Below are positions 3,119-29,307 of a DNA stretch of 64,000 bases, in pieces (position 1 is the first letter of the stretch; each line of letters starts with the position of its first letter). A model generated the notes under the pieces. It made no database searches, had not been told where the DNA came from, and saw only the letters and a list, made by a program, of their open reading frames with translations. Made by a program: the position numbers and the translations under genes. Source of the DNA: an uncultured Algimonas sp. (GTDB taxonomy: Bacteria; Pseudomonadota; Alphaproteobacteria; Caulobacterales; Maricaulaceae); NCBI RefSeq assembly GCF_947498175.1, contig NZ_CANMJB010000004.1:1-64000 (forward strand), read 5' to 3'.

Positions 3119-4813
3119 TCAGGTCTCCATCCGGCCGAAGGCCAGCGAGCCGTCCTCGCGCACGATGTCGAAAGCGGCTCGGGAGGCGGCCCTGTAGTCG
3201 CGGGTCAGGACGGTGTCGACGGCGACGAATTCGGCGCGGGCACCGTCGCGGGTCAGGTGCAGGTCGATATAGCCCTTGCCTTCGGGATCGTGGTGGCGGA
3301 CCATCGGGTTGGCTTCCGCCAGCAGGCGCGAATAGGTCGCCCCTTCCGCGCCGAAATAGGTGGACGCCCCCGGAGAGGTCACGGCGTTGGTGCCGAGTTC
3401 CACGCCCATGCGGCGGCCCGAAGCGTCGCGCAGCTCGTTGGCCCACCATTCATGCGTGTCGCCCGTCAGCACGATCAGGTCCGTCGCCCCGGCTTCGGCC
3501 ATGGCGGCGTAGAAGCGTTTGCGTGCCGCCGGGTAGCCGTCCCACGCGTCCAGGTTCAGCGGAATGCCCAGGGCGGACAGGGCGATGAAGTCGCGGATCT
3601 GAGGGAAGACCTTCTCGATCTCCGCGATGGCCGGGGAGTTCGCCAACGGGGTGAGGTCCGGCGCCGTGACTTCGGCCATGATGATCTGGTTGGCTATGAC
3701 GCGCCAGCGCGTGCCGTCCTCGACCGACGCCGCCAGGGTCCGCGCCAGCCGCTCGGCCTGCGGACGGCCGAGCAGCTCGCGCCGATCGTCGGGCAGGTCG
3801 ACCTCCTTGAACTGCGCCAGACCTTCCGGCGTGGCCAGCGTCGGGCCGATCACCGCATAGTCCAGCTGCTCGGACCGGGCCATCAGCCGCGTTTCCAGCG
3901 TCGCCAGCGTGACCAGGTCGCCCCACTGGAAGTCGCGCAGCAAATCCTCCGCCGCGCGGCCGGGCGCCGGATCGCGCACGGGCATCCATTCGTAATAGGC
4001 GCGCAGGGCGGCGGCCCGGCGCGTGTCCCAATCGCCTTCGCCCATGTCGGGATCGTGGTTCTCCGCCCCATTCTCCCAGCTATTGTTCGTCGTTTCGTGG
4101 TCGTCCCAGATCGGGATCAGCGGATGGGCGGCGTGCATGGCGCGGCTGCCAGGGTCCGTTTTGTATTGCGCGTGGCGGGTGCGGTAATCGTCCAGCGTGA
4201 CGATCTCGGCATCCGGCGCATGTTCGCGGCCCAGCCGTTTGGAGACTTCGCCGCCATACCCTTGCGTCGAATATTCGTAGATATAGTCGCCCAGATGAAT
4301 GACCGCGTCGATGTCGCCGCGGCGCGACACCGCGTCATAGACGTTGAAATGGCCGAAGGCGTGGTTGGAGCAGGACATGACCGCGAAGCGCGCGGCGTCG
4401 AGACGGCCCGTCGGCAAGGTGCGGCTGCGCCCGGTTTCCGAAGCGGCATCGTCCGTGTGGAAGCGGTAATGGTAGAGGCGCCCCGGCTCCAGCCCGGTGA
4501 CATCCACCTTGAGCGTCCAGTCGCGCGCCGCACTGGTTCGCGCCGTGCCGTCCGCGATCACGTCGGCGAAGTTTGCATCGGTCGCGACTTGCCAGGCGAG
4601 GTCGGCTGGTCCGGTCGTGCCCGCCGGCGGGCTCACGCGTGTCCAGATCAGGAAGCCGTCCGTCGCCGGTTCGCCCGACGCGACGCCGTGACGGAATTCC
4701 GCGCCGCTTAGCGCCGCACCGCGCGTCGCGCCCGTCGTCGTGCAGGCGGCCAGGCCCGTGGCCAGACCGCCGAGCAGTCCGCTTCTCAGCGCGCCGCGTC
4801 TCGAAATCCGCAT
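3119..4813 (-). CDS. phoD: PhoD-family alkaline phosphatase / phosphodiesterase, Tat-exported lipoprotein
   Basis: A 564-residue metallophosphoesterase of the PhoD family, which releases phosphate from organic phosphate esters and diesters outside the cytoplasm. The N-terminus carries twin arginines (SRRGALRS) followed by LAAC, so it looks like a Tat signal combined with a lipobox. Conserved metal-site motifs are SCSN (about residue 147), HLGDYIYE (about 173), WDDHE (about 227) and LTGDTHEWW (near residue 450). No pho-box was recognised upstream. The alpha/beta hydrolase follows closely. Exact substrate preference cannot be told from sequence. Confidence 0.9.
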   Translation of the reverse strand: MRISRRGALRSGLLGGLATGLAACTTTGATRGAALSGAEFRHGVASGEPATDGFLIWTRVSPPAGTTGPADLAWQVATDANFADVIADGTARTSAARDWTLKVDVTGLEPGRLYHYRFHTDDAASETGRSRTLPTGRLDAARFAVMSCSNHAFGHFNVYDAVSRRGDIDAVIHLGDYIYEYSTQGYGGEVSKRLGREHAPDAEIVTLDDYRTRHAQYKTDPGSRAMHAAHPLIPIWDDHETTNNSWENGAENHDPDMGEGDWDTRRAAALRAYYEWMPVRDPAPGRAAEDLLRDFQWGDLVTLATLETRLMARSEQLDYAVIGPTLATPEGLAQFKEVDLPDDRRELLGRPQAERLARTLAASVEDGTRWRVIANQIIMAEVTAPDLTPLANSPAIAEIEKVFPQIRDFIALSALGIPLNLDAWDGYPAARKRFYAAMAEAGATDLIVLTGDTHEWWANELRDASGRRMGVELGTNAVTSPGASTYFGAEGATYSRLLAEANPMVRHHDPEGKGYIDLHLTRDGARAEFVAVDTVLTRDYRAASRAAFDIVREDGSLAFGRMET

Positions 4814-4884
4814 TCCGTTCCTCCCGTGTCTCCGCTTCGTCCCTGCCCGGCTTTCGTGACGCGGATATGTCAGCGGTGATCCGC

Positions 4885-5838
4885 CTATTCGGCGGAGGCG
4901 CCTTCGAACGCGCCGCCGAGCGAACGCCAGGCCGCGGTGATGATGCCGGCCCGGTCGATGAAGCCGTCCATGTCCGCCATGTCGTCCAGCGGCGCAGCGG
5001 CGAGGATCGCCTCCAGACTGTCGCCCGCCTCAAAGCGCAGCTGTACACGCTCGAGAATGGTCTGCAGCGTGTCGCGCGCCTCGCGCAGTCCGGCCGCATC
5101 CGTGATCGGGCCGTGGCCGGGAATGATGACGGTCCGCGGGTCGGACAGGGACAGGGCCTTGTCGTGGGCCGCGATCATGCCCTGCATCGACCCGCCGCTA
5201 TCGACATCGACGAAGGGGAACATGCCGAGAAACAGATTGTCGCCCATGTGGATGACGTTCGGTTCTTCGAACACGACGATGGAATCGCCGTCCGTATGGG
5301 CGGCGGGCATGTGGACGGCCCGTGCCGTCATGCCGTTGAAGTGCAGGCTGGCTTCGTCGGTGAAGGTCACGACCGGCCAGAAATCCTCGCTCTTGGCTTC
5401 GTTCATCCGCCCGAACGCCTTGTTCATGTAGCTTTCGCCCATGCGGATGCGCACATTCTCATGCGCCATGATCATCGCGCCCGCTTCGGCCATTTCGGGG
5501 TTGGACCCGGTATGGTCGCCGTGGATATGCGTGTTGATGACGAACAGCAATTCGTCGTTCTCGCCCGCGATCTGGCCGACATGGTAGAGGATCTCCTCGG
5601 CGTTTCGCGAGAACTTGTCGTCGATCAGCACCACCCCGTCGGGTCCGGAACTGACGCCGATATTGCCGCCGGGACCGAACAGGACATGCAGATTGTCCGT
5701 GATGCGTTCCACGGTCAGCTGCGGATCTTCCGGCGCGGGGCGCTCGGTCGTGTGGGAATGCTGGTCGTGGGCCTGGACCGTCGGCGCGGTCAGGCCCGCC
5801 AGCAGGATTGCGGTGCACAGCAAGGCGGTTCGAGTCAT
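4885..5838 (-). CDS. Periplasmic metallo-beta-lactamase-fold hydrolase
   Basis: A 317-residue protein with a cleavable signal peptide (hydrophobic segment 5-20, ending VQA-H) and the zinc motif THIHGDH (His104, His106, Asp108, His109). Later ligands are in PAAHTDGD and IPGHG. This is the SoxH/cyclase-like branch of the MBL superfamily. A His-rich stretch (HDQHSH) follows the cleavage site. The gene begins 11 bases after the dehydrogenase stop and probably shares its transcript. Substrate unknown; a beta-lactamase role is not implied. Confidence 0.82.
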   Translation of the reverse strand: MTRTALLCTAILLAGLTAPTVQAHDQHSHTTERPAPEDPQLTVERITDNLHVLFGPGGNIGVSSGPDGVVLIDDKFSRNAEEILYHVGQIAGENDELLFVINTHIHGDHTGSNPEMAEAGAMIMAHENVRIRMGESYMNKAFGRMNEAKSEDFWPVVTFTDEASLHFNGMTARAVHMPAAHTDGDSIVVFEEPNVIHMGDNLFLGMFPFVDVDSGGSMQGMIAAHDKALSLSDPRTVIIPGHGPITDAAGLREARDTLQTILERVQLRFEAGDSLEAILAAAPLDDMADMDGFIDRAGIITAAWRSLGGAFEGASAE

Positions 5839-5849
5839 GATGTCTCTTT

Positions 5850-6887
5850 CTATGAGGCGAGCGAGAGCCGCGCGCCGGGCGGCAGCACCCGGTCGGGGCA
5901 GGCGTGATTGTCCATGTGGGCGCGGATGTTGATGAGGACCTTCTCGCCCATTTCGCGACGGCTCTCATGCGTCGCCGATCCGATATGCGGGGCGAGAATC
6001 ACGTTTTCGAGACCGAGAAGGTCCGGATGCGGGCGCGGTTCGTCGGCATAGACGTCCAGGCCCGCCCCGGCCAGGCGGCCCTGGGCCAGCGCGTCGGCCA
6101 GCGCGGCTTCGTCCACGATCCCGCCGCGCGACGTGTTCACCAGATAGCTGTCGGGCTTCATCAGGGCCAGCGTGCGCCCGTCGATCAGGTGACGGGTGGA
6201 CGGGGTCAGCGGCGCGTTGATCGACAGGATGTCGATCTCGGCCAGCATGTCTTCCAGCGTGTCGTGCCAGTTCGCGTCCAGCGCACGTTCCATCGTTTCG
6301 GGGACACGCGTGCGGTTGTGGTAATGGACGGACAGCCCGAACGCGTGGGCGCGGCGCGCCACCGCGCTGCCGATCCGGCCCATGCCCAGAATGCCGAGCC
6401 GTTTGCCGCGCACCCGGTGGCCCAGCATGTGGGTCGGACCCCAACCGTCGAATTGGCCCGCCCGCAGGCGGCGGTCGCCTTCGACCAGGCGGCGCGGCAC
6501 CGCCAGGATCAGCGCCATGGCCAGGTCGGCCGTATCCTCGGTCAGCACGCCGGGCGTGTTGGTCACGGTGATGCCGCGCGCATGCGCGGCGGCGACGTCG
6601 ACATGGTCCGTGCCGGCGCCGAAATTGGCGATCAGGCTCAGCCGGTCGGGGGCGGCCGCGATCACGTCTGCGCCGATGTCGTCCGTCACGGTCGGCACGA
6701 ACACGTCGCAATCGGCGATGGCGGCGATCAGTTCGGCCTGGCTCATGGGCGTGTCGTCATCCCGCAGGACGGCATCGAACAATTCGCTCATCCGCGCTTC
6801 GACGGCATCCGGCAGTTTGCGGGTGAGGCAGACGCGCGGACGGACGGGACGGGACACGGCTCCGGCATCGGTCTGCTTGGACGACAT
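5850..6887 (-). CDS. D-isomer-specific 2-hydroxyacid dehydrogenase (glyoxylate/hydroxypyruvate reductase type)
   Basis: A 345-residue NAD(P)-dependent dehydrogenase. The Rossmann dinucleotide motif GMGRIG is at 168-173. The catalytic set is Arg254 (NTSRGG), Glu283 (YADEP) and His301 (APHIGSAT). A GAGTDHVD motif near residue 91 contributes to substrate binding. It probably reduces glyoxylate or hydroxypyruvate to the D-hydroxyacid in the cytoplasm. It is the first gene of a minus-strand group with the metallo-hydrolase. Formate or phosphoglycerate dehydrogenase roles are less likely, since their extra domains are missing. Confidence 0.87.
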   Translation of the reverse strand: MSSKQTDAGAVSRPVRPRVCLTRKLPDAVEARMSELFDAVLRDDDTPMSQAELIAAIADCDVFVPTVTDDIGADVIAAAPDRLSLIANFGAGTDHVDVAAAHARGITVTNTPGVLTEDTADLAMALILAVPRRLVEGDRRLRAGQFDGWGPTHMLGHRVRGKRLGILGMGRIGSAVARRAHAFGLSVHYHNRTRVPETMERALDANWHDTLEDMLAEIDILSINAPLTPSTRHLIDGRTLALMKPDSYLVNTSRGGIVDEAALADALAQGRLAGAGLDVYADEPRPHPDLLGLENVILAPHIGSATHESRREMGEKVLINIRAHMDNHACPDRVLPPGARLSLAS

Positions 6888-7007
6888 GGGCTCTCTTGGC
6901 GCGGCAGGGGGGGCGGGCGCAAGGGCTGCCCGTGCCGCAGGCGCGGATTCCGGGCATAAACAGTCTGATTAATGACCCCTTAACGACGTTTCGCAATAGG
7001 TGACACC

Positions 7008-7691
7008 ATGCGGACCCCATCCACAGCTCCGTCCCGTTCCATGCGCGGCACCGGTCTGGCAAAGCGAATCACCGGCCCTTTCGGCGGCCCTGTCGGCGGT
7101 CTGGTCGGGAGTCTGGTCGGGAGTCTGGCCGCGGCCTGGCTCCTCGTCGCCTTGCCCGCATCGGCGACCGACCCGGTCCCGCAGACGCGGACCTTGGCCA
7201 TGAACGTCGCCAAGCCGGCGTCGCCCCTCCACGCGTCCGCACCCTTGGGCAGTCTGTACCGGGTGGAGGGTGAGCGCACACCGTCGGGGTTCGACGTGCC
7301 GCGCTTCGTGAGCCTGAAATTCGGCCGGGTGAATGCGCGCACGGGTCCGTCGCGCAACCATTCCATCGCCTATCAGTACCGCCGTCGCGGCCTGCCGTTG
7401 ATCGTGGTGGCCGAAACCGAAATGTGGCGCAAGGTGCGCGATGTGGACGGCGACGAAGCCTGGGTCCGCAAGCCGGCCCTGTCCGGCGAACGTTTCGCCC
7501 TGCTGACGGTGCGAACGGCGGTCCGCGCCCGTCCCGACGCGGACGGCGCGACGATCGCCCGAATCGACCCGAACGTGCTGGTCAGGCTGGATCATTGCGA
7601 TGCGGGCGATTACTGCCGCATCCGCACCGATAACGGCGTGAAGGGGTTCGCCCCGCGCGCGGCGCTCTGGGGCGCGCAGACGATGGACTAG
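7008..7691 (+). CDS. Exported SH3-domain protein (bacterial SH3, DUF1058-like)
   Basis: A 227-residue protein with a basic N-terminus and a long Gly/Leu-rich hydrophobic segment (about 25-50, ending ASA), consistent with a signal peptide. Two bacterial SH3-like repeats follow: one around FVSLKFGRVNARTGPS (about residues 100-155) and one around LLTVRTAVRARPDADG (about 165-220). Such proteins usually bind peptidoglycan or envelope partners. It converges with the DUF4175 gene, leaving only 17 bases between stops. The N-terminus contains an imperfect VGG/VGS repeat. Function not established. Confidence 0.75.
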   Translation: MRTPSTAPSRSMRGTGLAKRITGPFGGPVGGLVGSLVGSLAAAWLLVALPASATDPVPQTRTLAMNVAKPASPLHASAPLGSLYRVEGERTPSGFDVPRFVSLKFGRVNARTGPSRNHSIAYQYRRRGLPLIVVAETEMWRKVRDVDGDEAWVRKPALSGERFALLTVRTAVRARPDADGATIARIDPNVLVRLDHCDAGDYCRIRTDNGVKGFAPRAALWGAQTMD

Positions 7692-7708
7692 CTTCTGTCG
7701 CTGGCGTC

Positions 7709-10378
7709 CTAGAAGCGACGCAACAGACGGTCCAGATAGTCGCGTTCCTGTTGGTCGCGTTCGGCCTCCGAGGCCCTGCGCCGCAGCTCTTCGAGGATCT
7801 CGCGCGACCGCTCCGCATTGTCGCGCGGATCGAGATCGGCCTGGGCATTGTCCGAATCCATCCCGTCCAGACCCCGGCCCAGCGGATCGGTTCCTTCCGC
7901 GCTTTCACCGGAAGCCTCGCGCCGTTCGGCCAGTTCGCGGCCCAGCGCATCGCCCGCGTCGCGCAGGGCGCGGATCGCGTCCATCTGGGCGTTGCGCGAC
8001 TCGCCGAACGAGCCCCGGCCCAGCGCCTCTTCCGACTCGCCCATCGCCTCCAGCGCCCGGCCCAGCGCGTCGCCGGAGGATCTCGCTCCGCCGCTCTCCG
8101 GCGTGCCGTTCGGATTGGGGTCGCCTTCGCTAGTCCCGCCTTGGCCGGGCTCGGGCGATCCGGCGTCGCCCTCCTCGCTCCCGGCTTCGGCGGACCGGTC
8201 GCCCGCTCCGGGGAGCTGCTCGCGCAGACCCTCGACCATGCGTTCGATTTCGGCCTGGCGGTCGGCCAGGTCCTGCGGCGAGGTGGGTTCGCCCGCGCGG
8301 CCCGGTTCGCCGAAGCGCCGCATCAGTTCGTCGCGTTCGGCTTGTCGCGTGCGGTCCTGCAGGTCGCGCTGTTCGCCCAGGCTCTCGGCCAGTTCCTCCA
8401 GCGCTTCGCGCATCTCCTCGCTGATCGCGTCCTCGCTGTCGCCGTCCCCGCCCCCGCCGCCGCCCGGCGTGATCTGCATCTGCATCGTCTCCAGCAGTTC
8501 GGCCAGCTGTTCCAGCGCGCGTCGCGCCCCTTCCGTGTCGCCGACGCGGTTGGCCTCCTCGATCGCGTCCAGCAGCGCCTGGATCTCGTCGGTCGAGCCC
8601 ATGGGCGAACTCCCGCCGCCGCTGGGGTCCGCGATCTCGGCGTTCTTGCGCAGCTCTTCCATATAGGCGTCCACGGCCTGGTTGTAGCGCTCGAACAGCG
8701 TGTCGATCTCGCGCTGCGGCGCGCGGCGGGCAATGCCTTCGCGCAAAGCGGCCTGCGCTTCCTGCATCTCCTGCAGGGCCGTGCCCAGCACACCGAACTC
8801 CGCCCGGTTGGCCAGGGTCCACATATGGTCGGGCAGGCCGTTCAGTGCCTCGGCCGACTTGGCGTAGCGCAGCGTCTTGCCGATATGGCGCAGGCCCAGA
8901 TAGACGACCGGATCGTTGAAGATCGCCGGGTCGGGACGCTCCGTCACGGCGTCGATCAATAGCGCGGCGCGCTGCACCGGTTCGGGCGCGCGGCCCAGCC
9001 GCCACGCGGTCTGGAGCGTGTCGAACGTGCCGTCCGAGGCGTCGTTGTCGGGCCGGTCTTCCGGCGCAGGCCCGTAGTCGCCGGATCCGCGCAGGACCAG
9101 GCCGCGCTGTTCGATGATGGCCTTGGCCAGCGGTTCGACGAAGATCTTGTCGGGCACGGTGGTGAAGAAGGGTTCGCTGACCCCGCGCTGCCCGGCCCCG
9201 TCCACGGCGACCAGCCGCGCGGCCACCTTGCGGCCCGCCAGCGGATGGCGTGTCAGGTCCAGTTTCACGGACCGGTCGGTTGCGTCCTTGAAACCGCCCG
9301 CTTGCGTATCGACGTCGGACGTGTCGCCGTCGAAGACGGTGGCGATATCCATCGCGTCCGGTATCTCGATCATCTCCAGCCGGACTTCCTCGACCCCGTA
9401 ATCGTCGGACGCATCGAATCGCAGCACCAGCCGGTCGCGCTTGTCGGCTTCGGGGTCGTCCAGCGTGTCGATGGTGGGCGGAGCGTCCGGCAGGGCGTCC
9501 ACCGTGAAGACCTTGCGGCGCGGCCCGATGCGCCAGTCCAGCACGCCGGAGCCGTCGATCACCGTGCGCGCTTCCGCGCTGGTCCGGCCCAGCGGGACCG
9601 GATCGATGAAGCGCGTGTCCGCCTCGCCGATATAGCGCGGTCGCGGCAGGACGGACGCGCCCGACGCCCGCACGACCAGCGTGGAGCCGACCGGCGCGCG
9701 GATCGGTCCGTCGCCTTGGGCGTAGATGGGTGGGCGGCCCGTATAGTCGGGCGGATCGACCCAGGCCTCGAAGGTGATGTCGTAGGGGTTCGTCGGCGGC
9801 AGCCAGACCGGCGACAGGGCGCGGCGCGTGCGTTCCAGCGCCAGACCCAGCGTCAGGAACAGGGCCAGGCCCAGCGCGATCGGTGCGACGATGCGCAACC
9901 CATAGCGGTCGATCCGCGACAGGGCCGGTTTGCGCCCCACGCCCCGGATGGCGTCCGCCTGCTCGCCCGCCTGTTTCAGATGGGCGGGCCACAGCTCCGG
10001 CGACAGCGCCGGGGCGTCGCGCAACGTGTCGAGCGGACGATGCGACAGCCCCGCCGTCCTTTCCAGCCGCCGCAGCGCATCCGAGCGGGTCGGCCAGCGT
10101 TTGCGCCGGACCTTGAAGGCCGCGCGCCCGATCAGCGCAAGCGTGCCGGTCAGCGCCAGGAGCCGCAGCGGATCGCCCGCCACTTCCCACGTGCCGAACC
10201 AGGTCAGGATCAGGAAGGCGGCCAGCGCCAGCGCGGGCAGAGCCAGGACCGGGGCGTAGGCCTCCCAGACCAGGCGCGCGCGCGCCAGCACGGCGAGACG
10301 GCGCAGCCGGATCGGCAGGACTGTGTCGGAGGTCGGCACGAAGCCGGGCCTAGCGTAGGCACGGCGCGCCTGTCGCAT
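7709..10378 (-). CDS. Large membrane protein of the DUF4175 / TIGR02302 family
   Basis: An 889-residue protein. The N-terminus holds hydrophobic segments at about 40-60, 75-90 and 165-190. It is followed by an extracytoplasmic domain rich in Pro, Asp and Tyr, and a long C-terminal half of acidic coiled coil with Gly/Ser-rich runs (for example GGGGGGDGDSEDAIS). This layout is that of a family conserved in alphaproteobacteria with no assigned role. The start at 10378 gives the full N-terminal hydrophobic region. It lies alone, converging with the SH3 gene and downstream of the homocysteine methyltransferase. Confidence 0.82.
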   Translation of the reverse strand: MRQARRAYARPGFVPTSDTVLPIRLRRLAVLARARLVWEAYAPVLALPALALAAFLILTWFGTWEVAGDPLRLLALTGTLALIGRAAFKVRRKRWPTRSDALRRLERTAGLSHRPLDTLRDAPALSPELWPAHLKQAGEQADAIRGVGRKPALSRIDRYGLRIVAPIALGLALFLTLGLALERTRRALSPVWLPPTNPYDITFEAWVDPPDYTGRPPIYAQGDGPIRAPVGSTLVVRASGASVLPRPRYIGEADTRFIDPVPLGRTSAEARTVIDGSGVLDWRIGPRRKVFTVDALPDAPPTIDTLDDPEADKRDRLVLRFDASDDYGVEEVRLEMIEIPDAMDIATVFDGDTSDVDTQAGGFKDATDRSVKLDLTRHPLAGRKVAARLVAVDGAGQRGVSEPFFTTVPDKIFVEPLAKAIIEQRGLVLRGSGDYGPAPEDRPDNDASDGTFDTLQTAWRLGRAPEPVQRAALLIDAVTERPDPAIFNDPVVYLGLRHIGKTLRYAKSAEALNGLPDHMWTLANRAEFGVLGTALQEMQEAQAALREGIARRAPQREIDTLFERYNQAVDAYMEELRKNAEIADPSGGGSSPMGSTDEIQALLDAIEEANRVGDTEGARRALEQLAELLETMQMQITPGGGGGGDGDSEDAISEEMREALEELAESLGEQRDLQDRTRQAERDELMRRFGEPGRAGEPTSPQDLADRQAEIERMVEGLREQLPGAGDRSAEAGSEEGDAGSPEPGQGGTSEGDPNPNGTPESGGARSSGDALGRALEAMGESEEALGRGSFGESRNAQMDAIRALRDAGDALGRELAERREASGESAEGTDPLGRGLDGMDSDNAQADLDPRDNAERSREILEELRRRASEAERDQQERDYLDRLLRRF

Positions 10379-10410
10379 AAAATATCAGTTATACGGCGCG
10401 GCGAACCGCC

Positions 10411-11436
10411 CTAGCGCCGCCGTCGCCCGCCTGCGCCGCGTCCGCGGCGCCCCGTCGTGCCCGCTTCCACCGGCGGATTGACCAGCGCACCGAGCGTCTC
10501 CTCCAGGCTCGCGCGCGTCGGTCGCGGTCCGGGCTCGTTGCGCGCGAGATAGTCGTCGATGGAACGGCGCATGGCGGCGACGTGTTCCGGCGCGTTGCCG
10601 CAACACCCGCCGATGATGCGCACGCCCGCGTCGGCCGCGAGCTGGGCATAGTCGTACATCAGCTCCGGCGTGCCGGAATAGACGGTCTCCTTGCCCATGA
10701 CGTGCGGGATGCCGCAATTGGCCTTCCCGACGATCACCGCGTCCGGGTCGGCCGCGGTCATGTCGAGCGTGCCGAGCAACAGGTCGGACGCGCCGACGCC
10801 GCAATTCGATCCGACGGCCAAGGGCGGCTCGGACAGACCGGCGGCGATGTTGTGGATCTGGTCCGGCGCGATGCCCATCATCGTCTTGCCGGCCGTGTCG
10901 AAGCTGGCGGTGTAGACATACGGCATGCCGCAATCGATGGCGGCCTGCGCGGCGGCCTGGATTTCCTCGGCCGCGGACATGGTCTCGATCCAGATCACGT
11001 CCGCCCCGCCGTCGCGCAGGCCCTCGATCTGGGTCTTGAAGGCGGCCACGGCGCCCTCCATCGTCATTTCGCCCATCGGTTCGAACAGCTCGCCCGTCGG
11101 CCCGACGGATCCCGCCACCACGACCGGACGCGTCGCCGCTTCGGCCACCCGGCCCGCGATCTCCGCGCCCGCCTTGTTGATGGCGTAGGTGTCGTCCTGC
11201 GCGTCGTGCAGTTTCAAGCGCGGTGCATTGGCCCCGAACGTGTTGGTCAGGATGATGTCCGACCCGGCCTCGACGAATTGGCGGTGCAACGTCTCCGGCT
11301 TGGACGGTTCGGTCAGGTTCCAGATGTCGGGCGGGAAGCCCGGCTCCAGGCCCATATGCATGAAGTTCGTGCCCGTCGCCCCGTCTGCCAGAAGCAGGGG
11401 CGTGCGTTGCAGCAGGTCATATAAAGAAATTCGCAT
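10411..11436 (-). CDS. bmt: Homocysteine S-methyltransferase (betaine-homocysteine methyltransferase type)
   Basis: A 341-residue zinc-dependent methyltransferase that makes methionine from homocysteine. The zinc ligands are the cysteine in GSNCG and the paired cysteines of IIGGCCG. The N-terminal ADGATGTNF motif is typical. The ATG at 11436 has a GGGAAGGA ribosome site just upstream and fits the family; upstream codons overlap the riboswitch region. The last 25 or so residues are a basic Gly/Arg tail. Methyl donor (betaine, S-methylmethionine or other) is inferred, with betaine favoured by similarity to alphaproteobacterial Bmt proteins. It is divergent from a B12 riboswitch and btuB. Confidence 0.82.
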   Translation of the reverse strand: MRISLYDLLQRTPLLLADGATGTNFMHMGLEPGFPPDIWNLTEPSKPETLHRQFVEAGSDIILTNTFGANAPRLKLHDAQDDTYAINKAGAEIAGRVAEAATRPVVVAGSVGPTGELFEPMGEMTMEGAVAAFKTQIEGLRDGGADVIWIETMSAAEEIQAAAQAAIDCGMPYVYTASFDTAGKTMMGIAPDQIHNIAAGLSEPPLAVGSNCGVGASDLLLGTLDMTAADPDAVIVGKANCGIPHVMGKETVYSGTPELMYDYAQLAADAGVRIIGGCCGNAPEHVAAMRRSIDDYLARNEPGPRPTRASLEETLGALVNPPVEAGTTGRRGRGAGGRRRR

Positions 11437-11502
11437 ATCCTTCCCATGATCGGGCTCTGCGCGCTTGTCAAAGCCTGTTTCGCCCTCTAGGTCGCGCGGC
11501 GT

Positions 11503-11656
11503 TCCGGTCATCTGAAAGGATGTGAATAGGGAACGGGGTGGAAATCCCCGACAGCGCCCGCTGCCGTGTTTGGCGAGGGGCGCCGCATCAGGCCACTGCG
11601 AGAGCGGGAAGGCGCGGCGCACCACTATCAGCCATCAGTCGGAAGACCTGCCGGAT
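11503..11656 (+). promoter_or_regulatory. Cobalamin (B12) riboswitch
   Basis: The segment has the ordered conserved blocks of the AdoCbl class: GGGAAC then GGTGGAAATCCCC, CAGCGCCCGCTGCCGTG, GCCACTG, CGGGAAGGCG, and the closing AGTCGGAAGACCTGCC box. The outer ends TCCGG (11503-11507) and CCGGA (11651-11655) can pair as P1. It sits about 135 bases before a TonB-dependent receptor start, the classical target. Binding of cobalamin should shut off receptor synthesis. Confidence 0.9.
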
Positions 11657-11792
11657 CATGTCGCCAGCGCGCGCGGGCGGGGCCGACCGATGCGCATGGA
11701 TGAGGGGGAGAGGGTCCCGCTCACTCAATGACGACGTCTTTGCAACACCGTGCGACGGGCGAGACCCGCGCGCGACACAGGAGACGTGCGTG

Positions 11793-13667
11793 ATGAAACG
11801 CTTTATTTTGGGAACGGCCTTGGGGATCGCCTCGGCCGTCGCGACGAACGCGGCCGGCTGGGCGCAGGTGCAGGCGGATGTCGATGACCCGGACCTGTTC
11901 GACACGGATGAGGTGGTCGTGTCCGCCACACGGTTGGGCGCCCTGGATGCGGACGAGCTGACGATCGCGTCCTCCGTCCTGACGGAAACCGAGATCGAGG
12001 CCCGCGGCCAGCAATATGTGTCGGACCTGCTGCGGTCCATGCCGGGCATCGCGATCAGCGCGTCCGGATCGCGCGGCAACCTGACCCAGATCCGCGTCCG
12101 CGGGGCCGAAGCCAACCATGTGGTCGTCATCATCGACGGCGTCGAAGTCGCCAACCCCAGCGACGGCGGGTTCGACCTGTCGGGCCTTCGCGCCCAGGAC
12201 ATCGTCAGGATCGAAGTGCTGCGCGGCGAACAGTCCGCGCTCTACGGGTCGGACGCCGTCGCGGGCGTGATCAACGTCGTCACCCGGGCCGGGAACACGG
12301 CCGAGCGCTGGCAGGCCAGCGTGGAAGGCGGATCGCGCGGCACGCTGGAAGGGCAGGCGAGCGCCGTCATCCCGATCGGCACGGCGGCCCTGTCCGTGAA
12401 CGGCAATGCGTTCCGTACGGACGGCTTCGATATCTCCGGGCTCGGCGGCGAAAAGGACGGATCGACTTCCGAAACCATCAATGTCGGCTTGAATGCGGTG
12501 CGTTTCGGCGGTGCGCGTTTCGATGCCAAGTTCGCCCATTCCAACGTGAACGCCGACTTCGACAGCGGGTCGCCCCTGCGCGACACGTCCGACACGTTGG
12601 AGGCCGGGACGACGACGGCGCGCGGCGATGTGAGGTTCAAGACCGGCGTGATCGACCACAAGATCGGCCTGGGCCATCTGGAGCGCAGAACCGATACAAA
12701 GAGCCCGACCGGGACGAGTCGGTCCGTGGGCGAGAGAACGACGGCGAGCTGGGCGGCGGGCCTGACGCGCGAGACGGACAAGTTCACCCTGCTGGGGGAA
12801 TTCGAACGCGAGACCTACAGCAATTCGCCCAACAGCGTCGATCCGGACGGCAAGGCGGAGAACGACACGGCCGCCATCGCGGCCGAATACCGCCGCACGC
12901 TGGGGCCGGCGACGCTGACTGCGTCGGGCCGTTACGACAGCAACGATCTGTTCGACGACGCCGTGACCTGGCGCCTGGGCGCGGCCTATGACTTCTCGTG
13001 GGAGGGCCGTCTGCGCGGCAGTGTCGGCACGGGCATCAAGAATCCCACCTTGATCGAATTGTTCGGCTTTTTCCCGGCCAGCAATTTCATCGGCAACCCC
13101 GATCTGGATCCGGAGAAGTCGATCGGCGTCAATGTCGGCTACCAACAGACGATCGGTGCGTTCGAAGGCTCGGTCGATCTGTTCTATTCCGAACTGCAGG
13201 ACGAAATCGACGGGTTCGTGTTCAACGGCGTGTCCAGTGTCCGCAACCTGGAGCGCGACTCGACCCGGCAGGGCGTCGAACTGGAAGCCAGCTACACGCT
13301 CGGCACCGTCCGGCTGTCAGGCTCCGCGACCTTCCTGGACAGCGACCAGGGCGACGTCGAAGAGCAGCGGCGACCGGACATGCTCGCAAGCGCGACGATC
13401 GACTGGGATGCGACGGACCGGCTGCGCCTGTCGGCCTATGCCGACCATACGGGCAGCCAGCTGGATTCGGACTTCTCGACCTTTCCCGCGCCGCGCGTCA
13501 CGCTCGATGCCTTCACTCTGGTCGGCGCCCGCGCCGCCTATGCCGTGGGCGATCATGCGACGGTGAGCTTGCGGGGCGAGAACCTGTTCGACGCGGATTA
13601 TCAGGAAGTCTTCGGCTACGCCTCGCCGGGCCGGGCCGTCTTCGCCGGGCTGGCGCTCGACTTCTAG
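11793..13667 (+). CDS. btuB: TonB-dependent outer-membrane receptor, BtuB-like (cobalamin uptake)
   Basis: A 624-residue outer-membrane receptor. A signal peptide (1 to about 24) is followed by a TonB-box-like EVVVSATR. Next comes a plug domain with LLRSMPGIAIS, IRVRG and VEVLRGEQSALYGSDAVAGVINVVT motifs. A beta-barrel ends with the family's GRAVFAGLALDF, terminating in Phe. The ATG at 11793 is preceded by AGGAG and follows the cobalamin riboswitch, which is the main reason to assign vitamin B12 as the cargo. No btuFCD transport genes are in the window. It converges with the GumN-type gene 21 bases away. Confidence 0.88.
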   Translation: MKRFILGTALGIASAVATNAAGWAQVQADVDDPDLFDTDEVVVSATRLGALDADELTIASSVLTETEIEARGQQYVSDLLRSMPGIAISASGSRGNLTQIRVRGAEANHVVVIIDGVEVANPSDGGFDLSGLRAQDIVRIEVLRGEQSALYGSDAVAGVINVVTRAGNTAERWQASVEGGSRGTLEGQASAVIPIGTAALSVNGNAFRTDGFDISGLGGEKDGSTSETINVGLNAVRFGGARFDAKFAHSNVNADFDSGSPLRDTSDTLEAGTTTARGDVRFKTGVIDHKIGLGHLERRTDTKSPTGTSRSVGERTTASWAAGLTRETDKFTLLGEFERETYSNSPNSVDPDGKAENDTAAIAAEYRRTLGPATLTASGRYDSNDLFDDAVTWRLGAAYDFSWEGRLRGSVGTGIKNPTLIELFGFFPASNFIGNPDLDPEKSIGVNVGYQQTIGAFEGSVDLFYSELQDEIDGFVFNGVSSVRNLERDSTRQGVELEASYTLGTVRLSGSATFLDSDQGDVEEQRRPDMLASATIDWDATDRLRLSAYADHTGSQLDSDFSTFPAPRVTLDAFTLVGARAAYAVGDHATVSLRGENLFDADYQEVFGYASPGRAVFAGLALDF

Positions 13668-13688
13668 CGGGTCCGCCCGGTCGCGTCT

Positions 13689-14675
13689 TCAATCCGTCGG
13701 CACGTCCGGCAGATCGAGATCGGCCGGGCGGATCACGTCCTCGCCCAGGAAGGCGAGGTAGCGCGAGATATCGTGGCCGCGCGCTTCCAGCGCGTCGATC
13801 AGGCTGTCCTCGCCCAGCAAGTGCGACAGGCCGACGGCCGCGAACCCTGTACCGGATCCGTCCATGAAAGCATCCAGCCGTTCGGCCCAGGCGGCGTTGC
13901 GGTCGGTCAGCACGGCGGCGACGTAGCCGTCCGGCGCGTTTTCCAGCGGTCCGGTCAGGGCCGCTTCCAGCGCATCGACATCGCCCACGGCCCAGTCGCG
14001 CGCGATCGCGGCGAGTGTGTCGTCCATCTCCTCGAAGCGTTCCATCGTATCGGTCAGCAGCTCCAGCTGAACGGCTTCGGGCAAGTCCGCCATCTGGCGG
14101 ATCTGCGCTTCGGCGGTTTCCAGGAAAACGACGTTCTTGCCGGACCGGGCCGCGCGCGATTTCAGCGCTTCGTCCGCCGATAGCTCCGCGCTCAGTCCGG
14201 CCGCGTCCGCCGCGGCCAGCGTCAGGAACTCGCCCGCCAGCCAGGGCCGCATCGAATCGAGTGCCGCCAGGTCGACCCCGCCATTGTTCGCCACCGCTTC
14301 GAGCAGGATGGACTGGTAATTGTCGAGCGTGTCGGTCAGGCGGTGCCCGTCGCGCCGGAACCCCCGTTGCGTGGCCAGCGCCTGTGCGCGCAGGCCCGCC
14401 GCCCCGGCATGGTCGGCTTCGAAGAAGACGGTGCCGCTTTGCGCGAACGCCTCGCGCATGTCGTCGCGCTGCCACCGCAAATCTTCGGGCAGCAGATGGA
14501 CCGTGCCGAACAGATAGAGCGTGCTGTCTTCGTCCTGCAGGCGCCAGAGGGCCGGCCCGTCATTGCGGGCGCGGGCGTCTTCGACCTTGCGCATGGCCCC
14601 GTCCGTGACGGGAACGCGGTCGCAAGCGGCCGTCAGGGTAGCGGCAGCGAGGAAGGATAGGATGAGACGCAGCAT
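13689..14675 (-). CDS. TraB/GumN family lipoprotein
   Basis: A 328-residue protein beginning with a lipoprotein signal (MLRLILSFLAAATLTAAC). It carries the TraB/GumN hallmarks: LYLFGTVHLLP near residue 55, FFEAD, and a C-terminal FAAVGLSHLLGEDSL. The family resembles Tiki-type metalloproteases, and the HLLP and GLSHLLG histidines are the likely metal site. The start at 14675 was chosen because it creates the signal peptide and lipobox; upstream codons add a non-family extension. Cellular role is unknown. Confidence 0.83.
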   Translation of the reverse strand: MLRLILSFLAAATLTAACDRVPVTDGAMRKVEDARARNDGPALWRLQDEDSTLYLFGTVHLLPEDLRWQRDDMREAFAQSGTVFFEADHAGAAGLRAQALATQRGFRRDGHRLTDTLDNYQSILLEAVANNGGVDLAALDSMRPWLAGEFLTLAAADAAGLSAELSADEALKSRAARSGKNVVFLETAEAQIRQMADLPEAVQLELLTDTMERFEEMDDTLAAIARDWAVGDVDALEAALTGPLENAPDGYVAAVLTDRNAAWAERLDAFMDGSGTGFAAVGLSHLLGEDSLIDALEARGHDISRYLAFLGEDVIRPADLDLPDVPTD

Positions 14676-27012: not shown

Positions 27013-27486
27013 ATGCGCCTAACCGTCCTGACCTGCCTCGCCGCGCTCGGCATGAATGCCTGCATGACCGTTCCCGCAGTCGAGAGTCCGCAAGTTGCAG
27101 AGCTCGCCGCCATACCCGGTGCAACCCCCGGTATGGTCGCCGCCGCGCAGGCCACGACGCTCTACCAGGGTCAACAGGCGCAGTTGCGCGATATCCGCAA
27201 CGCCGAAGCCCGCGTCGACCTAGCCCGCGCCCGTCTGGACTTCGACACGGTTCGCAACCGCGCCTCTGACGATGGCGAGGTGCGCGAATTCCTCGATGCA
27301 CGACGCTCCCTGCGGCGCCTGCGCAATGTCTACGGCCCCACGAATACGGGCCGCCGCGACTTCCACTTCAATCCGTTCGGCTACGGTCGTCATTGGCCGC
27401 GCCGCGATGGATGGCTTGGTCAATATTCCAATGGACGCGACAATGACGAATTTTCGCCTGTACACGGCGACATGCCGACACTGTGA
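27013..27486 (+). CDS. Small putative lipoprotein
   Basis: A 157-residue protein with a short lipoprotein-type signal (MRLTVLTCLAALGMNAC, Cys17). A helical, Ala/Arg-rich middle (about residues 45-110, with RNAEARVDLARARLDF) looks like a coiled coil. The C-terminus is rich in Arg, Tyr, Asn and aromatic residues. The ATG at 27013 is preceded by GGAGA; an earlier TTG is unlikely. No family recognised. It marks the end of the GC-rich housekeeping block; the sequence after it becomes AT-rich. Confidence 0.6.
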   Translation: MRLTVLTCLAALGMNACMTVPAVESPQVAELAAIPGATPGMVAAAQATTLYQGQQAQLRDIRNAEARVDLARARLDFDTVRNRASDDGEVREFLDARRSLRRLRNVYGPTNTGRRDFHFNPFGYGRHWPRRDGWLGQYSNGRDNDEFSPVHGDMPTL

Positions 27487-27677: not shown

Positions 27678-27707
27678 TTGAAAATTGTCCCTCACTATGA
27701 TTATACT
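27678..27707 (+). promoter_or_regulatory. Sigma-70-like promoter of the double-glycine peptide gene
   Basis: TTGAAA (27678-27683) and TATACT (27702-27707), separated by 18 bases, each match five of six consensus positions. Transcription would begin near 27714. Confidence 0.6.
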
Positions 27708-27715
27708 TTAAGATA

Positions 27716-27753
27716 GGTGGAATGTCTGGTCCACCGAAATCATGATCAAGGAG
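27716..27753 (+). promoter_or_regulatory. 5' hairpin and strong ribosome-binding site
   Basis: GGTGGA (27716-27721) pairs with TCCACC (27730-27735) right at the expected 5' end of the transcript, a position where hairpins stabilise mRNA. A consensus AAGGAG site (27748-27753) follows, 8 bases before the ATG at 27762. Confidence 0.55.
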
Positions 27754-27761
27754 ATCTTCTT

Positions 27762-27947
27762 ATGGCTTTTAGAGAATTGAGTGCAGATGATATGAAGGCC
27801 GTATCCGGCGGTAATCCAGCTCCAGGTCAGTCTTGGGTCGATTATTTGGAGAAGAAATTCCCATTGGGTGAATGGCATAATGGATCTTTCTATCCAAATG
27901 GAGTGCCCGGAAATATCGCTCAGGGTCCGAATTCAACCGGCCATTAA
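27762..27947 (+). CDS. Double-glycine leader peptide (bacteriocin- or signal-like precursor)
   Basis: A 61-residue peptide. Residues 1-17 (MAFRELSADDMKAVSGG) form a textbook double-glycine leader: an ELS..DM..VSGG pattern ending in Gly-Gly, the site cut by C39-peptidase ABC exporters. The predicted 44-residue core is rich in Gly, Pro, Asn, Trp and Tyr, ends NSTGH, has no cysteine and is not strongly hydrophobic. The start at 27762 is fixed by a strong AAGGAG; an upstream in-frame GTG is ignored. The gene has its own promoter and terminator and lies in AT-rich DNA, suggesting transfer. No exporter or immunity gene is in the window. The alternative is a secreted signalling peptide. Confidence 0.68.
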   Translation: MAFRELSADDMKAVSGGNPAPGQSWVDYLEKKFPLGEWHNGSFYPNGVPGNIAQGPNSTGH

Positions 27948-27961
27948 AACCGTAATTTGTC

Positions 27962-27996
27962 TTGATCGAAGGTGTCTCAGCACCTTCGATCAATTC
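27962..27996 (+). terminator. Strong terminator of the double-glycine peptide gene
   Basis: TTGATCGAAGGTG (27962-27974) and CACCTTCGATCAA (27981-27993) are a perfect 13-bp stem with a 6-base loop, followed by TTCCTGGTTTT. It lies 14 bases after the stop codon. Confidence 0.75.
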
Positions 27997-28062: not shown

Positions 28063-28445
28063 TCATGGACGTCCAGCCGGCTCGGTCTTCGCTTTAGCGG
28101 CCCAGATCATCCCCATCTCGGTCGGCCAGAACCCGAACCGCGCAAGGCCCGACGGTATCTCGGCATTGAAGCCTTTAGCGCCCTCCGCCGTGTCGGACAC
28201 GTCGGCCCGCTTGCCATAGGGTTGCCCGCCGTCGCTGGTGAACGACCAGAAGGCAGGGACCTTGTCCGCATTCAGGCCGTAATGCGCGATCTCGGAGTAG
28301 GTCTTCTTCTCTTGCTAATGTCCCAGTCCGCCTACAGGCGGATGAATTTGCCGTCCGAAATCGGCTCATAGTGCCGGATGCACTCCACTCGACCCATAGG
28401 CGTATCAGGGTCTATCGCCAGCCATCGTCCGATAAAGGAGTGCAT
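28063..28445 (-). pseudogene. Broken gene for a small unknown protein (third gene of a decayed ArsR operon)
   Basis: From the ATG at 28445 the frame reads MHSFIGRWLAIDPDTPMGRV and on to KFIRL, then hits an in-frame TAG at 28332-28334. Past the stop the same frame gives ADWDISK. After a one-base shift it continues as KKTYSEIAHYGLNADKVPAF, FWSFTSDGGQPYGKRADVSD and FWPTEMGMIWAAKA to a TGA at 28063. Joined together this is a coherent protein of about 125 residues with repeated aromatic strands, probably a small beta-barrel. The family name is not recognised. One nonsense and one frameshift mutation make it inactive. Confidence 0.7.
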
Positions 28446-29030
28446 GACCCCAGCTTGCCCCGGCCCTCTTTCCACTGTTGCACCCTTCTGCGTTCCCCCG
28501 CTTTGCAATACCGCCAGACGCTCTCTGTATTCATCTTCCGCTGTTTCATGGCGGACAAGAAAGTTGGGCGCGAGCCGGTATGACAGGCGGCATTCCAGCC
28601 GTTCCAGATGCGTCTGCCACCCGGCGGCTGCCCCGACCCTGTCTCCGGGACGCGCAAGACGTTCATGCACCAGTCCCAGATTGGTGCCGTCGCCGGCCGG
28701 AGTGAGCGTGATCGTGACGAGCGAGTCTTGCGAACTCTTCTCCCCCGGCCATTCGAGCGCCAACTTGCGATATTCCCATGTGTTACGACGCGACCCTCGA
28801 AAGCGGCCGTGTAGGCAGTGGACGATGCGCCGTCCGGGTAGGAATTGCCAAAAGCCTCCGGGTCGAACTTGAATTGGACACGGCCGCCCTCGCGTGGCTC
28901 GACCAATCCCCAGCGTAGTCACTCCTCCGCGTTTTTCGTCCTCGACGAGGAATCGCCAGGCCGTCATCGGCGGAGCCGACAGGTGTCGCCGGAAGACCAA
29001 CCGGCTTGCGTCGACCGTTTATGCTTCATG
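28446..29030 (-). pseudogene. Broken SRPBCC / AHSA1-type gene
   Basis: Pieces of an activator-of-Hsp90-like START-domain protein are spread over two frames. They are VFRRHLSAPPMTAWRFLVED, then in another frame VEPREGGRVQFKFDPEAFG and YTAAFEGRV, then back in the first frame TWEYRKLALEWPGE, SLVTITLTPAGDGTNLGLVH and LERL. The original start was probably the ATG at 29030, directly after the ArsR stop, which is also out of frame. At least three frameshifts are needed to restore it, so it is not functional. Such SRPBCC genes typically sit downstream of an ArsR regulator, as here. Confidence 0.75.
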
Positions 29031-29040
29031 GTCCCGGCCC

Positions 29041-29307
29041 TTAATTCGCATGGCGTATCACGGCGTCGTCCAGTGACTCCAGCCGGTCCGACCAGAAGAC
29101 GGCGTAGCAGTCCAGTCAGTCGCGCATTTCTGCCATGGGTCTGGGGTCGAGCGTGAAGACCTGCTGCCGCCTCTCCATGCGCCTGTGGATGAGCTGGGCC
29201 TTGACGAGCACACCGACATGTTTGGACGCTCCGGCAAAACTCATGTCCAGAGGGTCCGCCAGCCTTGAAAGCAAGACGAGTTCGGTATTCGGAATTCGTT
29301 CAACTAT
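29041..29307 (-). pseudogene. Broken ArsR-family regulator gene
   Basis: The minus strand reads VERIPNTELV, then LADPLDMSFAGASKHVGVL and VFTLDPRPMAEMRD, then a TGA, then LDCYAVFWSDRLESLDD. This is an ArsR helix-turn-helix regulator of the type paired with SRPBCC proteins. The start codon has changed from ATG to ATA (29305-29307). Roughly 25 residues of the N-terminal helices are missing. An internal stop (TGA) follows MAEMRD. Three separate lesions make inactivity nearly certain. Confidence 0.75.

What the first reader, a model, noticed from the sequence alone, without database searches (positions are those of the whole stretch)
27678..27996. Self-contained double-glycine leader peptide cassette
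A 61-codon ORF has a textbook GG leader (ELSADDMKAVSGG) and a 44-residue core without cysteines. Everything needed for expression is packed around it: near-consensus promoter, 5'-end hairpin, AAGGAG site, and a perfect 13-bp terminator. Base composition is AT-rich against GC-rich neighbours, and it sits next to decayed DNA, pointing to recent acquisition. There is no C39 exporter or immunity gene in the window. The core sequence is not one I recognise, so it may be a new bacteriocin, microcin-like or signalling peptide.
Basis: partly seen in the sequence, partly recalled or inferred. Interest (0 to 1): 0.85.

Follow-up and report, generated by a model that had tools for sequence, protein, structure and literature searches.

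The report
Orphan secreted peptide with double-glycine leader
A marine bacterium carries a small stand-alone gene for a secreted peptide of a new family, probably exported by machinery encoded elsewhere in its genome, and following it up uncovered what looks like an undescribed peptide-signal system in its relatives.

Summary
The ORF is real: window 27762-27947 (+), 61 aa, MAFRELSADDMKAVSGG|NPAPGQSW... A leader model made from other species' GG leaders finds it as the one strong hit in the window (17.2 bits; best in 1.02 Mb of reversed DNA 10.4). The core has one relative, in another alphaproteobacterial order: 20 of its first 32 residues identical, leader diverged, Gly-Gly at the same junction. 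The genome has three C39-domain transporters, two with the catalytic motif, so cutting and export in trans is the best reading. Its job is open: microcin-like or cell-interaction peptide; no immunity gene was seen beside it. The 'terminator' is a perfect 13-bp hairpin without a T run; the 5' hairpin is no better than chance. Tracing the leader gave the larger result: this genome and 20 related loci carry a C39 exporter followed by a GG precursor (mature e.g. YPIIVDF; tandemly repeated in some), with a stub HlyD in all 20 loci with upstream DNA, and a histidine kinase whose sensor is predicted as a TPR solenoid in 20 of 21. This is a candidate peptide-pheromone system; eight paper searches showed none like it.

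The parts
27013..27486 (+). lipoprotein-like gene upstream (lipobox by eye); neighbour, not part of the cassette
   Evidence: 67% identical over 129 aa to a gene just after glnA in Algimonas arctica (L071), where the peptide is absent
27678..27707 (+). sigma-70-like promoter match TTGAAA-18-TATACT
   Evidence: 10 of 12 consensus positions; 3 such sites in the kilobase against 0.8 expected; consensus match only
27716..27735 (+). 6-bp hairpin in the presumed 5' UTR
   Evidence: fold z -0.93, not better than shuffles
27748..27753 (+). AAGGAG ribosome-binding site
   Evidence: sequence, 8 nt before the ATG
27762..27812 (+). double-glycine leader, MAFRELSADDMKAVSGG
   Evidence: 31-leader HMM from other species 17.2 bits; weak sub-cutoff matches to Pfam Mersacidin E 0.011, NCBIfam lichenicidin E 0.0096 and bacteriocin_sig E 0.13
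27813..27944 (+). 44-residue core peptide NPAPGQSWVDYLEKKFPLGEWHNGSFYPNGVPGNIAQGPNSTGH
   Evidence: homologue in G587 E 5e-9, 63% identity over residues 1-32; 20 of the first 32 residues identical
27945..27947 (+). stop codon
27962..27993 (+). perfect 13-bp inverted repeat with 6-nt loop; possible terminator or 3' end stabiliser
   Evidence: fold z -5.87; no T run, not called a terminator
28063..29274 (-). decayed remnants of an ArsR-type regulator, an AHSA1-type gene and a third gene; neighbours, not part of the cassette
   Evidence: tblastn matches to three open adjacent ORFs of Algimonas porphyrae; AHSA1 E 7.4e-9, HTH_20 E 0.0028 below cut-off

Best explanation
It is an orphan (exporter-less) double-glycine peptide gene. 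The 61-aa precursor is recognised by its leader, cut after Gly17 by the C39 peptidase domain of an ABC exporter encoded elsewhere in the genome, and the 44-aa core, whose first 32 residues are the conserved part, is released from the cell in trans. The exporter at C3:373.5 kb (C39 + full HlyD, beside its own glycine-zipper GG peptide) is the likelier route, because the other active C39 exporter, at C3:310.9 kb, has only a stub HlyD and sits beside its own tiny peptide. Outside, the hydrophilic, tryptophan-rich, cysteine-free core most likely acts on neighbouring cells: microcin-like competition (about 45%), or a signal, adhesion or biofilm peptide (about 40%). Shown: the ORF, a leader above controls, a core homologue with GG at the same junction, active-type C39 exporters in both genomes. 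Inferred: cleavage, export, which exporter, and the function.
For: Leader HMM from other species: 17.2 bits, only strong hit in 64 kb, control 10.4. Core homologue in another order, E 5e-9 in one of 384 other genomes sampled; GG junction kept while the leader diverged. Own genome: three C39 places; L007 and L008 exporters keep ECGLAC, L009 does not. L008 exporter is followed by HlyD. G587 also has two C39 proteins; one is a 706-aa exporter with ECGLAS beside a 410-aa HlyD-like ORF and several GG-leader-like ORFs, and its homologue too lies without an exporter in the 19 kb fetched. Four further GG-type peptides in the own genome, two of them likewise without an exporter in the 19 kb fetched (L053, L086). 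Precedent for GG proteins needing a C39 transporter for a non-bacteriocin role: EbfG1-4/PteB (PMC4997328, passages).
Against: No transcript or product data. Only one homologue, so the family rests on two sequences; the G587 leader scores only 10.0 bits, below the best control. A leader HMM of pheromone-type leaders does not find the window peptide at E up to 20. Pfam and NCBIfam leader matches are all below their cut-offs. No immunity gene was seen beside either copy, and the core is hydrophilic (GRAVY -0.90), unlike a typical membrane-active bacteriocin. AlphaFold gives no confident fold (pLDDT 63, single sequence).
Confidence: 0.75

Rival explanations
1. It is a secreted signal or biofilm/adhesion peptide rather than an antibacterial one, one output of the genome's GG-peptide repertoire.
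For: No immunity gene seen at either locus; hydrophilic, neutral to acidic cores; the same genome has a candidate pheromone locus with a related leader; EbfG precedent in a cyanobacterium.
Against: Patchy occurrence (one of 384 other class genomes sampled; no convincing match among 17 congeners) and orphan, AT-rich setting fit a competition gene better; no receptor was found or sought for this peptide.
Confidence: 0.4
2. It is a class II microcin/bacteriocin with its immunity gene elsewhere or with a target that the producer lacks.
For: Bacteriocin-type leader; sister peptide at C1:372.9 kb is followed by a membrane-protein ORF, and the one at C3:373 kb by a 64-aa ORF with two hydrophobic stretches, both in the place of immunity genes.
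Against: No immunity candidate seen beside this one; not hydrophobic, no glycine zipper, no cysteine.
Confidence: 0.45
3. It is a recently gained, now useless relic: a degraded cassette stranded next to decayed DNA.
For: Neighbouring genes are decayed; no homologue in the genus; C-terminal tail of 12 residues beyond the conserved core, which the homologue lacks.
Against: Frame, start, ribosome-binding site and conserved core positions are all intact; 20 of the first 32 core residues kept across orders.
Confidence: 0.12
4. It is a chance ORF.
For: Short; no homologue in the genus or in the order-level sample.
Against: Core homologue at E 5e-9 with its own GG leader; leader score above 1.02 Mb of control DNA.
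Confidence: 0.03

Closest known systems
Double-glycine (C39-processed) peptides, class II microcin/bacteriocin type
   Same: 17-residue leader ending in VSGG, short core, active-type C39 exporters in the genome
   Different: orphan locus, no immunity gene seen, no recognised core; export and cleavage untested
Cdz contact-dependent glycine-zipper proteins of Caulobacter (PMC5380434; passages)
   Same: order Caulobacterales, type I export, GG-type leader; the genome's C3:373 kb locus has that kind of layout (C39, HlyD, divergent glycine-rich peptide, small ORF)
   Different: the window core has no glycine zipper and no immunity gene beside it; it is not a Cdz protein
EbfG1-4 / PteB of Synechococcus elongatus (PMC4997328; passages)
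   Same: small GG-motif proteins that need a C39 transporter, without known homology
   Different: unrelated sequence as far as seen by eye; role there is biofilm formation
Lanthipeptide leaders (Mersacidin/lichenicidin families)
   Same: weak leader similarity, E about 0.01, below cut-off
   Different: no cysteine, so no lanthionine; no modification enzyme sought genome-wide
For the pheromone module found on the way: ComAB/ComC/ComD-type and RNPP (Rap, NprR) peptide signalling (recalled; Rap and NprR appear among Foldseek matches)
   Same: GG precursor + C39 exporter + histidine kinase; TPR-type predicted sensor fold
   Different: Gram-negative, sensor predicted outside the inner membrane, kinase rather than cytoplasmic regulator, stub HlyD, 5-9-residue or tandemly repeated cores

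Membership tests
Double-glycine leader peptide (C39 substrate) | leader with the spaced hydrophobic/acidic pattern ending in GG, GA or GS | tested here: met
   31-leader HMM 17.2 bits, control best 10.4; curated models below cut-off
Double-glycine leader peptide (C39 substrate) | C39 exporter with catalytic Cys in the genome | tested here: met
   three C39 places; two keep ECGLAC
Double-glycine leader peptide (C39 substrate) | Gly-Gly conserved at the leader-core junction in homologues | tested here: met
   one homologue, GG directly before NP in both; n = 2
Double-glycine leader peptide (C39 substrate) | cleavage after GG and release of the core | not testable with these tools
   needs mass spectrometry
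Class II microcin/bacteriocin | immunity gene beside the peptide | tested here: not met
   ORF list around 27.76 kb and around the G587 copy shows no small membrane protein beside it, read by eye
Class II microcin/bacteriocin | antibacterial activity | not testable with these tools
   bench only
Cdz glycine-zipper protein | glycine-zipper core | tested here: not met
   core read by eye; feature as described in PMC5380434 passages
Lanthipeptide | cysteines for lanthionine rings | tested here: not met
   no cysteine in the core
Pheromone-type GG precursors of the L007 locus | MREL[ST]xEE[LIV]xxVxGG leader with 5-9-residue core, next to C39 exporter and kinase | tested here: not met
   pheromone-leader HMM does not find the window peptide at E up to 20; core 44 aa; no exporter or kinase beside it

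The most novel reading that the evidence does not exclude
Robiginitomaculaceae, this genome included, run an undescribed peptide-pheromone circuit: a C39 exporter with a stub HlyD releases a GG-led, 5-9-residue (or tandemly repeated) peptide such as YPIIVDF, and a kinase with a TPR-solenoid sensor outside the inner membrane reads it; sensor and peptide diverge together as pherotypes. The window peptide is a secreted product of the same GG-peptide repertoire, possibly an effector under that circuit.
Probability: 0.55. Interest if true: 0.9.

Novelty: new member of a known kind. Interest (0 to 1): 0.68.

Why it matters
The window peptide founds a new two-member family of secreted GG peptides with a conserved 32-residue core and shows that orphan GG peptides in Gram-negative genomes can be recognised by leader plus core, away from any exporter. 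The module met on the way matters more: short linear peptide pheromones read by a kinase are textbook for Gram-positive bacteria (recalled), and PMC5380434 says that no quorum-sensing-type system had been described for Caulobacter crescentus. A conserved exporter-precursor-kinase module with variable short peptides in the sister family Robiginitomaculaceae makes peptide signalling in Alphaproteobacteria directly testable, with a cultured, fully sequenced type strain (Algimonas porphyrae LMG 26424) at hand.

Tried and rejected
Homologues by the full 61 aa: none in the genome-contig scan (41 pattern stretches, none confirmed; close relatives only), viral contigs, phages; 17 congeners gave only E 0.35 and 0.45; of 298 other relatives 24 had weak matches, best E 0.0028, 13 of those 24 were read and none showed a GG leader. 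Plasmids: a Rhizobium phaseoli match at E 1 lies in an unannotated intergenic stretch and has no GG leader; 15 weak matches at E 1-10, eleven of them inside a phosphodiesterase gene; a Methylobacterium match at E 0.9 lies in a kinase gene. Rejected.

Lanthipeptide: rejected, no cysteine. Rfam: one hit in the window, a cobalamin riboswitch far away. PHROGs and solved structures: nothing useful. Single-sequence fold of the peptide: pLDDT 63, not used.

TIGR01847 over the own genome finds the window leader below cut-off and not the other four. The leader search with A2 is partly circular for this genome, because A2 holds three of its own leaders, the window's among them; one search is the independent test. 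There the C3:373 kb peptide scores only 8.7 bits, below the best control, and rests on context alone. 'TPR' for the kinase sensor was first my guess by eye; Pfam gave only one weak TPR match (E 0.0066) in five kinases; the fold prediction and Foldseek carry it, at modest TM-scores.

Mean kinase identity printed (0.42) is too low: 19 of the 190 pairs count as zero because L082 ends before the kinase; without them it is 0.47 by arithmetic.

Full report
Observation. The ORF is at window 27762-27947 (+) as described: 61 aa, leader MAFRELSADDMKAVSGG, 44-aa core without cysteine, AAGGAG 8 nt upstream. It is AT-rich (GC3 0.39 against 0.71-0.84 in four window genes). The 13-bp inverted repeat is exact and folds far better than shuffles (z -5.87), but no T run follows and the scan does not call a terminator. 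The 5' hairpin is no better than chance. The promoter match is fair (10 of 12), in a stretch with more matches than expected (3 against 0.8).

Is the leader real? Curated models give weak, sub-cutoff matches (Mersacidin E 0.011, lichenicidin E 0.0096, bacteriocin_sig E 0.13). I built an HMM from 31 leaders of other species, picked by eye from the C39-neighbour list, none from this genome. It scores the ORF 17.2 bits (E 3.3e-4 in the window; the next hit has E 0.76). In 1.02 Mb of reversed DNA the best score was 10.4. An HMM of 19 leaders of the L007-type precursors and their neighbours does not find it at E up to 20, so its leader is of the general GG kind.

Is the core real? The full peptide has no convincing match in 17 congeners or among 298 other relatives. 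The 44-aa core found one relative among 384 other genomes drawn from the class: G587, another order, E 5e-9, 63% over residues 1-32. Its ORF reads MTVNTILDLNVIEISSVAGG|NPEDGQSWYDYLNDRFPGGEWVGNSFFPNGAPEFP: 20 of the first 32 core residues are identical, the leader has diverged, and Gly-Gly stands at the same junction. Against this: its leader scores only 10.0 bits with my HMM, below the best control, and n is two. Shared core pattern: NPxxGQSWxDYLxxxFPxGEWxxxSFxPNGxP.

Export. The own genome (2.85 Mb, 26 contigs) has three C39 places. Two are peptidase-type exporters with ECGLAC (L007, L008); the third (L009) lacks the cysteine by eye and sits with a second HlyD protein. L008 pairs its exporter with a full HlyD. 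G587 has two C39 proteins; one is an exporter with HlyD and a run of GG-leader-like ORFs, three scoring above the control and three below. Both copies of the peptide lie without an exporter in the stretches read (window; L200), so export in trans is the simplest reading. It is inferred, not shown.

Neighbourhood. The lipoprotein-like gene before it follows glnA in Algimonas arctica too, without the peptide (L071). After it lie pieces of three genes (ArsR-type, AHSA1-type and a third) that are three open adjacent ORFs in A. porphyrae. No flanking repeats were found. Gain by transfer is plausible but not shown. Lineage: contig lengths identify G001 as Algimonas arctica (414,984 bases) and G003 as A. 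porphyrae LMG 26424 (3,169,281 bases), so the window is from the same genus as grouped by the tool.

The genome's other GG peptides. A leader pattern gave six places, of which four are GG precursors and two lie in long unrelated ORFs; the control pattern gave one place. A leader search added a fifth precursor. They are: the window peptide; C3:233.5 kb (MRELKTEEMRDVSGG|FLILL..., no exporter among the listed neighbours); C1:372.9 kb (MRNLSLAEMSSVSGG|GGCSD..., followed by a 175-aa membrane ORF without a Pfam or NCBIfam match); C3:373 kb (glycine-rich, beside C39 and HlyD, with a 64-aa ORF); and C3:309 kb (MRELTVEELDVVVGG|YPIIVDF). In the independent HMM four of the five score 17.2-19.8 bits; the C3:373 kb one scores 8.7.

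The pheromone-like module. In 12 of 18 genomes of the genus, this one included, a tiny GG precursor lies 191-266 bp after a C39 exporter; five genomes gave no such hit and one (G013) a longer peptide. Nine more loci came from the genome-contig scan with the L007 exporter (80 loci kept of 538). Cores: YPIIVDF, APIIVDF, NPIVIDF, LPIIIDEF, VPIIVGQDF, LPIVIDF, GPIVIDF, QPIIVGDF, QPIVIWL, NPITIEI, MPILTGGIGEN, KIVVD, QPVIVEF, VPIVIRN, LPIVIEN, TPIVIRN, SPIVIDF; one (L098) is about 31 aa long. Tandem repeats occur in FPIIIG x3, RSIKT x4 and IPVIDF x4, and in FPIDIEV x2 and GPVIIET x3 from a wider search whose neighbours I did not check. That search, over 398 genomes drawn from the order, found 36 at E up to 0.01; of 30 loci, 27 were printed, 23 of them of the short or repeat type and four longer.

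Upstream of the exporter lies a stub HlyD, 60-73 residues from the motif to the stop, in 20 of 20 of these loci that have upstream DNA (L085 begins at a contig edge); L100 and L101, with full HlyD, lack the kinase. Downstream, 20 of 21 loci hold a kinase related to that of L007 (one cut by a contig end after the sensor); in the other (L099) the contig ends too early. Three of five kinases scanned carry a receiver domain; L007 and G001 do not. A hydrophobic stretch before the kinase is seen in 11 of 11 and one at the N-terminus in 9 of 11 (not L007, L143), which puts the sensor outside the inner membrane. Its model is an all-helical solenoid (pLDDT 78, 11 sequences); Foldseek's two matches with E up to 0.001 are designed TPR proteins, and Rap and NprR, which bind pheromones, are among the next (E 0.003 and more, TM-scores 0.2-0.5). 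This shows the fold class, not binding. Sensors are 16-32% identical to that of L007, kinase domains 38-67% (18 of 19 rows): faster change on the sensing side, as expected of pherotypes but also of many sensors.

Literature. Eight searches of open-licence papers listed nothing that describes this module or this peptide; I saw listings only, apart from PMC5380434 and PMC4997328 (passages) and PMC11556061 (whole text). Subscription papers are largely missing; a 2004 in-silico screen for GG peptides in Gram-negatives (Dirix and others) is recalled, not seen.

Verdict. The window finding is a real orphan GG-peptide gene of a new two-member family, most likely exported in trans; its action is unknown, with microcin-like and interaction/signal readings about equal. 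As a thing it is a new member of a known kind. The module found through its leader is the part that a specialist would find surprising; it raised the interest score.

Noticed in passing
L007 (G000 C3:303000-322000), exporter 6224-8317 (-), precursor 5949-6014 (-), kinase 3673-5835 (-), stub HlyD upstream; relatives L075-L085, L091-L094, L096-L099, L143: Candidate peptide-pheromone module: stub HlyD, C39 exporter, tiny GG precursor (YPIIVDF; repeats in some relatives) and a histidine kinase with a predicted TPR-solenoid sensor.
   Followed up: partly
L008 (G000 C3:365000-384000), 7440-11841: Cdz-like locus: C39 exporter and HlyD, divergent glycine-rich peptide MRELTTDEMHKTGG|AIWANVAGG..., and a 64-aa ORF with two hydrophobic stretches in the place of an immunity gene.
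   Followed up: partly
L086 (G000 C1:363000-382000), 9945-10739: Further GG peptide, AT-rich, followed by a 175-aa membrane-protein ORF (CPBP-like by eye; no Pfam or NCBIfam match), with similar lipoprotein-like sequence on either side.
   Followed up: partly
L053 (G000 C3:224000-243000), 9453-9593: Further orphan GG peptide with a hydrophobic start of the core (FLILLAILMPGEV...) and a 9-bp hairpin before its ribosome-binding site (z -2.24).
   Followed up: no
L203 (G587 C1:1060000-1078000), about 10800-13700 (-): Run of GG-leader-like ORFs beside C39 and HlyD, one with a glycine-rich core and one with a strikingly proline-rich core (PYPLPFPYPQPSPFPEP...).
   Followed up: no
L087 (G013 C28), L190, L193, L195: Longer GG-leader proteins of about 130-240 aa; two cores begin with EIVVTATR- or TVIVTAHR-like stretches that recall TonB-receptor plugs (recalled, not tested).
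   Followed up: no
window 11488-11669 (+): Cobalamin riboswitch, 101 bits.
   Followed up: no
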